NCBI GenBank assembly: GCA_017528825.1
Contig: JAFXOI010000005.1
Span: forward strand, 1-64,000
Direction of reading: 5' to 3'
Length of the DNA stretch: 64,000 nt
Origin: Elusimicrobiaceae bacterium
Lineage (GTDB): Bacteria > Elusimicrobiota > Elusimicrobia > Elusimicrobiales > Elusimicrobiaceae
Shown piece after piece: positions 15,758 to 16,206 of this stretch (its first letter is position 1; each line of letters starts with the position of its first letter). A program made the position numbers and the translations under genes. Under the pieces are notes generated by a model that worked only from the letters and a program-made list of their open reading frames with translations, made no database searches and had not been told where the DNA came from.

Positions 15758-15828
15758 AGCGGGCGATGGGAATCGAACCCACGTGACCAGCTTGGAAGGC
15801 TGACGTTCTACCATTGAACTACGCCCGC
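15758..15828 (-). tRNA. tRNA-Gly (UCC anticodon)
   Basis: Acceptor GCGGGCG/CGCCCGC, anticodon stem GTCAGC/GCTGGT region with loop CTTCCAA, T loop TTCGATT. Length 71 nt, no encoded CCA. First RNA of the tRNA-Gly/tRNA-Thr/tuf transcription unit. Confidence 0.93.
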
Positions 15829-15964: not shown

Positions 15965-16038
15965 AAAAAAGGGGGGAAGCCGCGCCCCTCTACGGGACAT
16001 AACCCTTTCAAAAATAGGCTCTCTGTTGGCTTCCCCTA
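15965..16038 (-). ncRNA. Candidate small structured RNA, about 74 nt, unknown class
   Basis: The unit is bounded by a good promoter (TTGAAA, 16 nt, TATACT at 16044-16071) and an intrinsic terminator. The two ends of the RNA pair with each other: GGGGAAGCC (16028-16036 on the plus strand as its complement) with GGCTTCCCC (15973-15981), immediately followed by six U. Inside are a GGG-UUAUGU-CCC hairpin and a GCCUA...UAGAGGGGC pairing. No open reading frame fits. It does not show the SRP, 6S, tmRNA or RNase P signatures I know. It lies between tRNA-Gly and tRNA-Cys. Confidence 0.6.
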
Positions 16039-16043
16039 CCGCT

Positions 16044-16071
16044 AGTATAAACTAAAAGTAAATTTTTTCAA
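16044..16071 (-). promoter_or_regulatory. Promoter of the candidate small RNA
   Basis: -35 TTGAAA (16066-16071), 16-nt spacer, -10 TATACT (16044-16049). The expected start near 16037 is the first base of the closing stem. Confidence 0.7.
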
Positions 16072-16101
16072 GGGGTATTTTTCAAAAAAGTGTTTTTTTG
16101 C

Positions 16102-16134: not shown

Positions 16135-16206
16135 GGTGCGGTGGCCAAGTGGTAAGGCGAGAGTCTGCAAAACTCTTATTCGTGGGTTCGATTCCCACCC
16201 GCACCT
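16135..16206 (+). tRNA. tRNA-Cys (GCA anticodon)
   Basis: Acceptor GGTGCGG/CCGCACC, anticodon stem GAGAGT/ACTCT region with loop CTGCAAA, T arm GTGGG-TTCGATT-CCCAC, discriminator U73 as expected for Cys. No CCA is encoded; a T run follows and may terminate transcription. Its last 11 bases and 27 nt downstream are duplicated at 16406-16441. Confidence 0.95.

What the first reader, a model, noticed from the sequence alone, without database searches (positions are those of the whole stretch)
15965..16071. Candidate small RNA of about 74 nt with own promoter and terminator
Promoter TTGAAA-16-TATACT, predicted start at the first base of a stem, ends paired with each other (GGGGAAGCC/GGCTTCCCC) and a U6 tail. 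This is an independent transcript, not a leader, since it terminates before tRNA-Gly. Its class is unknown to me.
Basis: partly seen in the sequence, partly recalled or inferred. Interest (0 to 1): 0.6.

Follow-up and report, generated by a model that had tools for sequence, protein, structure and literature searches.

The report
Genus-wide three-way-junction small RNA
Gut bacteria of one genus of Elusimicrobiota carry a small structured RNA of about 70 letters beside a transfer-RNA gene, with its own strong promoter, and its shape has been preserved by matched mutations although no known RNA class fits it.

Summary
The finding holds up. On the minus strand at 16037-15965, a TTGAAA-16-TATACT promoter precedes a ~73-nt RNA whose ends pair (P1), enclosing two hairpins (P2, P3), followed by U6. 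A model built from 5 copies finds it in 57 of 66 genomes of the genus (family Elusimicrobiaceae, probably Candidatus Avelusimicrobium), including 36 of 36 high-quality genomes, one convincing copy each. All 57 lie beside tRNA-Cys, which the search did not use. In 54 distinct sequences 95.7% of base-pair cells are intact and 12 of 16 pairs show compensatory change (0 of 500 shuffles equal it); 51 of 54 fold alone into the three-way junction (4.6% of shuffles do). All 57 keep a promoter; its extended -35 element resembles that of the genus's 16S rRNA promoters. It is not a leader: all 40 tRNA-Gly genes found downstream have their own TATAAT, and 5 copies are inverted. No Rfam family matches, and no copy was found in 274 other genomes of the phylum. 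Hfq and SRP were not detected in five genomes examined, making Hfq-dependent antisense action and divergent SRP RNA unlikely. Most likely it acts as an abundant protein-binding RNA; that step is inferred.

The parts
15965..16037 (-). the small RNA, ~73 nt, three-way junction (transcribed 16037 to 15965)
   Evidence: covariance hits at 15965-16038 and 15966-16038
16066..16071 (-). -35 box TTGAAA
   Evidence: TTGAAA/TTGATT/TTGACA/TTGAAT in 57 of 57 copies
16044..16049 (-). -10 box TATACT
   Evidence: the scan scored TATACT in 41 of 57 copies and another -10 hexamer in the other 16
16072..16080 (-). extended -35 element AAATACCCC (TAGGCC/TAGGTC/TGGGTC forms in most relatives)
   Evidence: related element before 16S rRNA and other RNA-like units
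16028..16036 (-). P1 5' strand GGGGAAGCC
   Evidence: pairing conserved with compensatory changes
15973..15981 (-). P1 3' strand GGCTTCCCC
16016..16020 (-). P2 5' strand AGCCT
16001..16005 (-). P2 3' strand GGGTT; loop L2 16006-16015 is U-rich
   Evidence: UUU in L2, each position 46-50 of 54 distinct sequences
15994..15998 (-). P3 5' strand GTCCC
15984..15988 (-). P3 3' strand GGGGC; pentaloop L3 GUAGA 15989-15993
   Evidence: L3 is mostly (G/U)UNNA
15965..15970 (-). U6 tract after P1 (intrinsic-terminator tail)
   Evidence: U run of at least 5 after P1 in 40 of 57 copies
16135..16206 (+). tRNA-Cys (gca), divergent neighbour
   Evidence: next to the RNA in 57 of 57 copies
15758..15828 (-). 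tRNA-Gly (tcc), downstream neighbour with own TATAAT at 15852-15847

Best explanation
It is an independently transcribed, structured small RNA that belongs to the core gene set of one gut genus of Elusimicrobiaceae (probably Candidatus Avelusimicrobium). A strong promoter resembling the rRNA-operon promoter makes a three-way junction of about 60-74 nt (in many relatives with an extra terminator hairpin behind it). Shown by sequence comparison: the structure, the promoter, the single copy, the fixed place beside tRNA-Cys, and independence from the downstream tRNA genes. Inferred: it is abundant and growth-coupled, and it works as a folded RNA that binds a protein (as a scaffold or decoy) through the junction, the U-rich L2 loop and the (G/U)UNNA L3 pentaloop, rather than by antisense pairing. 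My estimates: independent structured RNA 0.93; stable-RNA type of promoter 0.75; protein-binding mode 0.4.
For: 57 of 66 genus genomes at E <= 6.7e-6, 36 of 36 that are at least 90% complete and at most 5% contaminated; 52 of the 57 were not in the model. 57 of 57 lie next to tRNA-Cys, 52 of 57 divergently. Covariation: 12 of 16 pairs with two-sided changes, all 3 helices, 0 of 500 shuffles as high; slid controls 4-5 pairs. 51 of 54 distinct sequences have a three-way-junction MFE against 494 of 10800 shuffles; median z -2.1. Promoter in 57 of 57. The extended -35 element also stands before 16S rRNA in two genomes (L228, L251) and before an unrelated conserved RNA-like unit in five. For protein binding over antisense: unpaired positions A15 (54/54), L2 UUU (46, 50, 50 of 54), U53 (49/54) and A56 (53/54) are conserved while the longest single strand, J12, varies in sequence and length; Hfq is not detected in 5 of 5 genomes.
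Against: No transcript data. No protein partner is identified; protein binding is inferred from which positions are conserved. The fold of the window's own sequence alone is only z = -1.97. 17 of 57 copies lack a run of 5 U after P1, so the exact 3' end differs between species. Three of 54 sequences do not have the three-way junction as MFE. Alignment A6 was fitted to the model's structure, and cell counts are not independent events; in the 28-sequence alignment A5 two-sided changes were weak (89 of 500 shuffles reach the number of pairs). Promoter resemblance to rRNA rests on few genomes, and the pattern's total of 43 hits stands against 20 for its reversed control.
Confidence: 0.5

Rival explanations
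1. It is a trans-acting antisense regulator: the loops or the J12 strand pair with mRNAs.
For: Size, own promoter and U-tailed end are those of many bacterial regulatory RNAs (general knowledge); L2 and L3 are partly conserved and exposed.
Against: No Hfq in 5 of 5 genomes; J12, the longest single strand, varies in sequence and length; the conserved C-rich stretches lie inside P1. Targets were not searched: the whole genome was not available as a file.
Confidence: 0.27
2. It is an attenuator or riboswitch-like leader of the tRNA-Gly/tRNA-Thr/tuf genes, with P1 as a conditional terminator.
For: tRNA-Gly lies downstream on the same strand in 40 of 57, and P1 is closely followed by U6 in the window.
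Against: tRNA-Gly has its own TATAAT 11-21 nt upstream in 40 of 40; 5 of 57 copies are inverted; many relatives have a second terminator in between; no alternative antiterminator pairing was seen in the folds.
Confidence: 0.07
3. It is a strongly diverged form of a known housekeeping RNA (SRP RNA or 6S RNA).
For: No SRP RNA and no convincing 6S RNA were found by Rfam models in five genomes, so an unfilled role could exist.
Against: Ffh's RNA-binding domain is absent too, so no SRP RNA is needed; the RNA is too short and of the wrong shape for 6S (recalled anatomy); no Rfam hit in the window stretch or in six relatives' loci; it is absent from the other genera of the family.
Confidence: 0.05
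4. Chance: an ordinary terminator next to a chance promoter.
For: Single-sequence z only -1.97; promoter-like sites near the chance number in the region.
Against: together.
Confidence: 0.01

Closest known systems
Bacterial independent small RNAs in general (own promoter, intrinsic terminator)
   Same: Intergenic, own -35/-10 promoter, U-tailed 3' end, about 65-74 nt, single copy.
   Different: The terminator stem encloses a two-hairpin junction instead of being a separate hairpin; no Hfq in the genomes examined; no Rfam family.
SRP RNA (RF00169, RF01854)
   Same: Small, structured RNA.
   Different: No match to either model in 5 genomes; Ffh M domain not found in 5 of 5 genomes.
6S RNA (RF00013)
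   Same: Closing stem, a wide junction, terminal hairpin.
   Different: About 70 nt against 187 model positions; no long promoter-like duplex; no convincing match in 5 genomes (best E 3.64 at another place).
Three-way-junction riboswitches
   Same: P1-P2-P3 junction with conserved unpaired bases; P1 next to a U run.
   Different: No gene is controlled by it at a fixed place; no Rfam match even at loose thresholds.

Membership tests
Independently transcribed structured small RNA | own promoter conserved in relatives | tested here: met
   57 of 57 copies
Independently transcribed structured small RNA | secondary structure kept by compensatory change | tested here: met
   12 of 16 pairs, 0 of 500 shuffles as high
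Independently transcribed structured small RNA | ends before the next gene | tested here: met
   by sequence only: U run of at least 5 after P1 in 40 of 57; further terminator-like site in 48 of 57, though in some that hit is the tRNA-Gly leader hairpin; tRNA-Gly has its own promoter in 40 of 40
Independently transcribed structured small RNA | a transcript exists | not testable with these tools
   no RNA-seq on hand
Hfq-dependent trans-acting sRNA | Hfq in the genome | tested here: not met
   PF17209: 0 of 5 genomes; control rings in 5 of 14
Hfq-dependent trans-acting sRNA | conserved single-stranded seed and conserved target | not tested
   J12 varies; no target search made
SRP RNA | match to RF00169 or RF01854 | tested here: not met
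   0 of 5 genomes each
SRP RNA | Ffh partner protein | tested here: not met
   PF02978 0 of 5; control 14 of 14
6S RNA | match to RF00013 and long duplex of ~180 nt | tested here: not met
   no match at this RNA; the model rings in only 8 of 14 controls, so 6S elsewhere in the genome is not excluded
Cis-acting leader / riboswitch | same strand as and co-transcribed with a fixed downstream gene | tested here: not met
   5 of 57 inverted, others without tRNA-Gly downstream; own promoter of tRNA-Gly 40 of 40
Any Rfam 15 family | score above gathering threshold | tested here: not met
   (E <= 10, one chance hit on an lncRNA model)

The most novel reading that the evidence does not exclude
The RNA is the founding member of a new class of ribonucleoprotein RNA, made from an rRNA-like promoter and coupled to growth, that arose beside tRNA-Cys when this genus split from its sister genera and does a core job in bacteria that lack detectable Hfq and SRP.
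Probability: 0.12. Interest if true: 0.75.

Novelty: new member of a known kind. Interest (0 to 1): 0.52.

Why it matters
It is a well-supported RNA family without a match in Rfam, present in every high-quality genome examined of an animal-gut genus, hence probably important to it. It seems to have arisen at a datable point: in the sister-genus loci examined the tRNA genes before tuf run in one direction without the RNA, whereas here the RNA stands between tRNA-Cys and tRNA-Gly. Because these bacteria appear to lack Hfq and SRP, they are an unusual setting in which to learn what such an RNA does. The shared promoter element also points to further unnamed RNAs.

Tried and rejected
Reverse strand as the RNA: weaker fold and the promoter faces the other way; rejected. 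Leader/attenuator: rejected. SRP RNA: rejected. Rfam at loose thresholds: one meaningless hit overlapping the RNA; relatives' loci gave tRNAs and chance hits. A kissing interaction between L2 (UUUU) and L3 (AAAA): possible in the window's group by eye, but by eye not kept in the UUGUA and GUUAA groups (loops listed); dropped, not computed. Anti-Shine-Dalgarno CCUCC in P1: absent in several copies; dropped. Small protein: only 8 of 54 sequences hold a complete ORF of at least 12 codons; dropped. Homologues beyond the genus: six R2 matches (E 2.5e-4 to 8.9e-3) were fetched and inspected. No tRNA lies in any of the six stretches; each match is covered by an open frame of 72-399 codons; of the five whose alignments were printed, three (L260-L262) are plain terminator hairpins with the inside of the junction missing and two (L258, L259) keep an outline but lose part of P1; the sixth (L263) matches model positions 19-49 only; judged chance. 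Second weak hits near the RNA in G064 and G019 (L061, L064) look like the hairpin leader before tRNA-Gly, not a second copy. Phage records: no match; plasmid and E. coli collections were not searched. Papers: 'Elusimicrobium'+'small RNA' (listing only), 'Avelusimicrobium' (listing only) and 'Elusimicrobi'+'noncoding RNA'+'intergenic'+'covariation' (no paper) showed nothing on this RNA; bioRxiv and most subscription journals were not searched.

Full report
What is there. On the minus strand the window reads: AAATACCCC, TTGAAA (16071-16066), 16 nt, TATACT (16049-16044), then from 16037 a 73-nt stretch ending in CCCCCC and U6 at 15965. The fold is a three-way junction: P1 GGGGAAGCC/GGCTTCCCC, P2 AGCCT/GGGTT with a U-rich loop, P3 GTCCC/GGGGC with loop GUAGA. 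By itself it is only moderately better than shuffles (z -1.97, 5 of 200). The other strand folds less well.

Rfam. The whole window gives only five tRNA matches at the gathering threshold. The 301-base stretch at E <= 10 gives one chance hit on an lncRNA model. Six relatives' loci with the RNA and four loci without it, at E <= 5, gave tRNAs and chance hits.

Relatives. A BLAST search of 61 genomes gave full-length or partial matches; four genomes besides the window's own had the same tRNA neighbours. From these five copies I built model R1. Over the 66 genomes of the genus, 57 have a match at E <= 6.7e-6. The nine without (best E 0.05 or worse, or none) are all below 90% complete; all 36 genomes at least 90% complete and at most 5% contaminated are among the 57. 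Fifty-two of the 57 had no part in making the model. In all 57 the RNA's neighbour on one side is tRNA-Cys, which the search knew nothing about: 52 divergent, 4 pointing into tRNA-Cys, 1 convergent. This is independent support that the hits are true.

Structure. A second model, R2, from 28 sequences with a bulged base in P1 finds 56 of the 66 genus genomes when run over 340 genomes of the phylum, and all 57 when run on the loci. On the resulting alignment (54 distinct rows) 95.7% of base-pair cells are standard pairs, 12 of 16 pairs show changes on both sides and all three helices take part; none of 500 shuffles reaches any of the five measures, and slid versions give 4-5 pairs. The alignment is fitted to the structure, and on the 28-sequence alignment alone two-sided changes were few, because P1 hardly varies there. 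Without any alignment, 51 of 54 sequences have a three-way junction as their minimum-energy fold against 494 of 10800 shuffles. P1 occurs in 20 sequence forms, among them GGGAGTGCC/GGCCTCCC, GGGAACGCA/GCGTTCCC, GGGAACCC/GGGTTCC and GGGAGACC/GGTCTCCC. Identity of the other 53 distinct sequences to the window copy is 59-82%.

Promoter and ends. All 57 copies have TTGANN, 16-18 nt, and a -10 box. The five bases before TTGA are AGGCC (23), AGGTC (11), GGGTC (9), GGGCC (8), ACCCC (4) or others (2). The pattern AWWTRSSYCTTGA was searched in six genomes: 43 hits, against 20 for the reversed pattern. Loci were made for 30 of the 43 and read. Five were this RNA; five another conserved RNA-like unit; three a homologous leader, of which two (L228, L251) precede 16S rRNA and the third locus showed no 16S match; three were further RNA-like units; at least two were promoters of protein genes; most of the rest look like chance sites inside genes. 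So the RNA uses a promoter type shared with rRNA, from which abundance and growth coupling are inferred. At the other end, 40 of 57 copies have at least 5 U behind P1, and many have a further terminator (in a few of the 48 hits this is the hairpin before tRNA-Gly). In the window P1+U6 is the only candidate found.

Not a leader. Where tRNA-Gly lies downstream (40 of 57) it has its own TATAAT 11-21 nt before the gene in all 40, the window included. Five copies are inverted relative to tRNA-Cys, and others have different downstream neighbours.

Origin. In the 24 genomes of other genera of the family R2 finds nothing. Twelve stretches upstream of tuf genes in seven such genomes were fetched. In the seven stretches that hold these tRNAs the order is (Cys-)Gly-Thr-tuf, all in one direction (Cys present in six of seven), and an unfiltered R2 search of all 12 gives nothing better than E 0.17. 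The RNA thus appears with the genus. Six weak matches elsewhere in the phylum were inspected and judged chance. The genus name rests on named contigs carrying the same rplA locus (one Candidatus Avelusimicrobium excrementipullorum, others 'uncultured Elusimicrobium', Elusimicrobiaceae, Elusimicrobiales; the Avelusimicrobium contig itself gave no R1 hit, its locus holding only 1.7 kb upstream of rplA) and on the taxonomy entry; it is likely, not proven.

How it works. Shown by comparison: independent unit, conserved shape, conserved promoter, core gene of the genus. Inferred: protein binding. The reasons are that the conserved unpaired bases sit at the junction and in two short loops, the longest unpaired stretch drifts, and Hfq is not found (0 of 5; control 5 of 14). 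L3 is mostly (G/U)UNNA, a pentaloop of the U-turn kind by recalled rules. Antisense action remains possible, since no target search was made. SRP RNA is excluded in practice: no SRP RNA and no Ffh M domain (0 of 5; control 14 of 14). A paper already noted that few Elusimicrobia have SRP proteins (PMC7987157, passages seen).

Verdict. A real small RNA family, previously unnamed as far as the searches made here show (Rfam 15; in the held papers), new in sequence and shape but of a known general kind. Its function is open.

Noticed in passing
five genomes: G000, G068, G030, G064, G102: No SRP RNA and no Ffh M domain found in this family; G102 is a single contig of 1,643,562 bases, by recall Elusimicrobium minutum. 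PMC7987157 (passages) already reports that few Elusimicrobia have SRP proteins.
   Followed up: partly
five genomes: G000, G068, G030, G064, G102: No Hfq found by Pfam PF17209.
   Followed up: no
L231 (G000:C1:198192), L234, L235, L250, L256: Another conserved RNA-like unit of roughly 180-200 nt (CCUUGGUUGCAGUUGUG...GGAAAGAGGAACAU) with the same extended promoter; in G000 with a mini-ORF and a terminator; 72-90% identical across five genomes, no Rfam match for L169 (same place as L231), L234 or L250.
   Followed up: partly
L252 (G064:C3:332318): A ~100-nt unit with paired ends GACUAACCUA/UAGGUUAGUC and a U-rich tail behind the same promoter type; fold z -2.9.
   Followed up: partly
L173 (G000:C31:100547) and L257 (G064:C3:470090): Long G-rich RNA-like units behind the same promoter; the one in L173 runs roughly 350-400 nt to a terminator; no Rfam match.
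   Followed up: no
L011, L012, L020, L026, L027, L241: A conserved unit, about AAGUUGUNACNGAGUGGGGNNCCAUCUCNGAACANCG, behind the same promoter type in several genomes; no Rfam hit for L012, L020, L027 or L241.
   Followed up: no
between the RNA and tRNA-Gly in relatives, e.g. L055, L057, L070, L082: A TATAAT promoter followed at once by a short G+C hairpin and U5 (GGCCCCC..GGGGGCCGUUUUU), like a tiny attenuator before tRNA-Gly.
   Followed up: no
downstream of the RNA in 15 of 57 copies: UAUGGG within 60 nt, in most of these as part of the loop of the second terminator.
   Followed up: no
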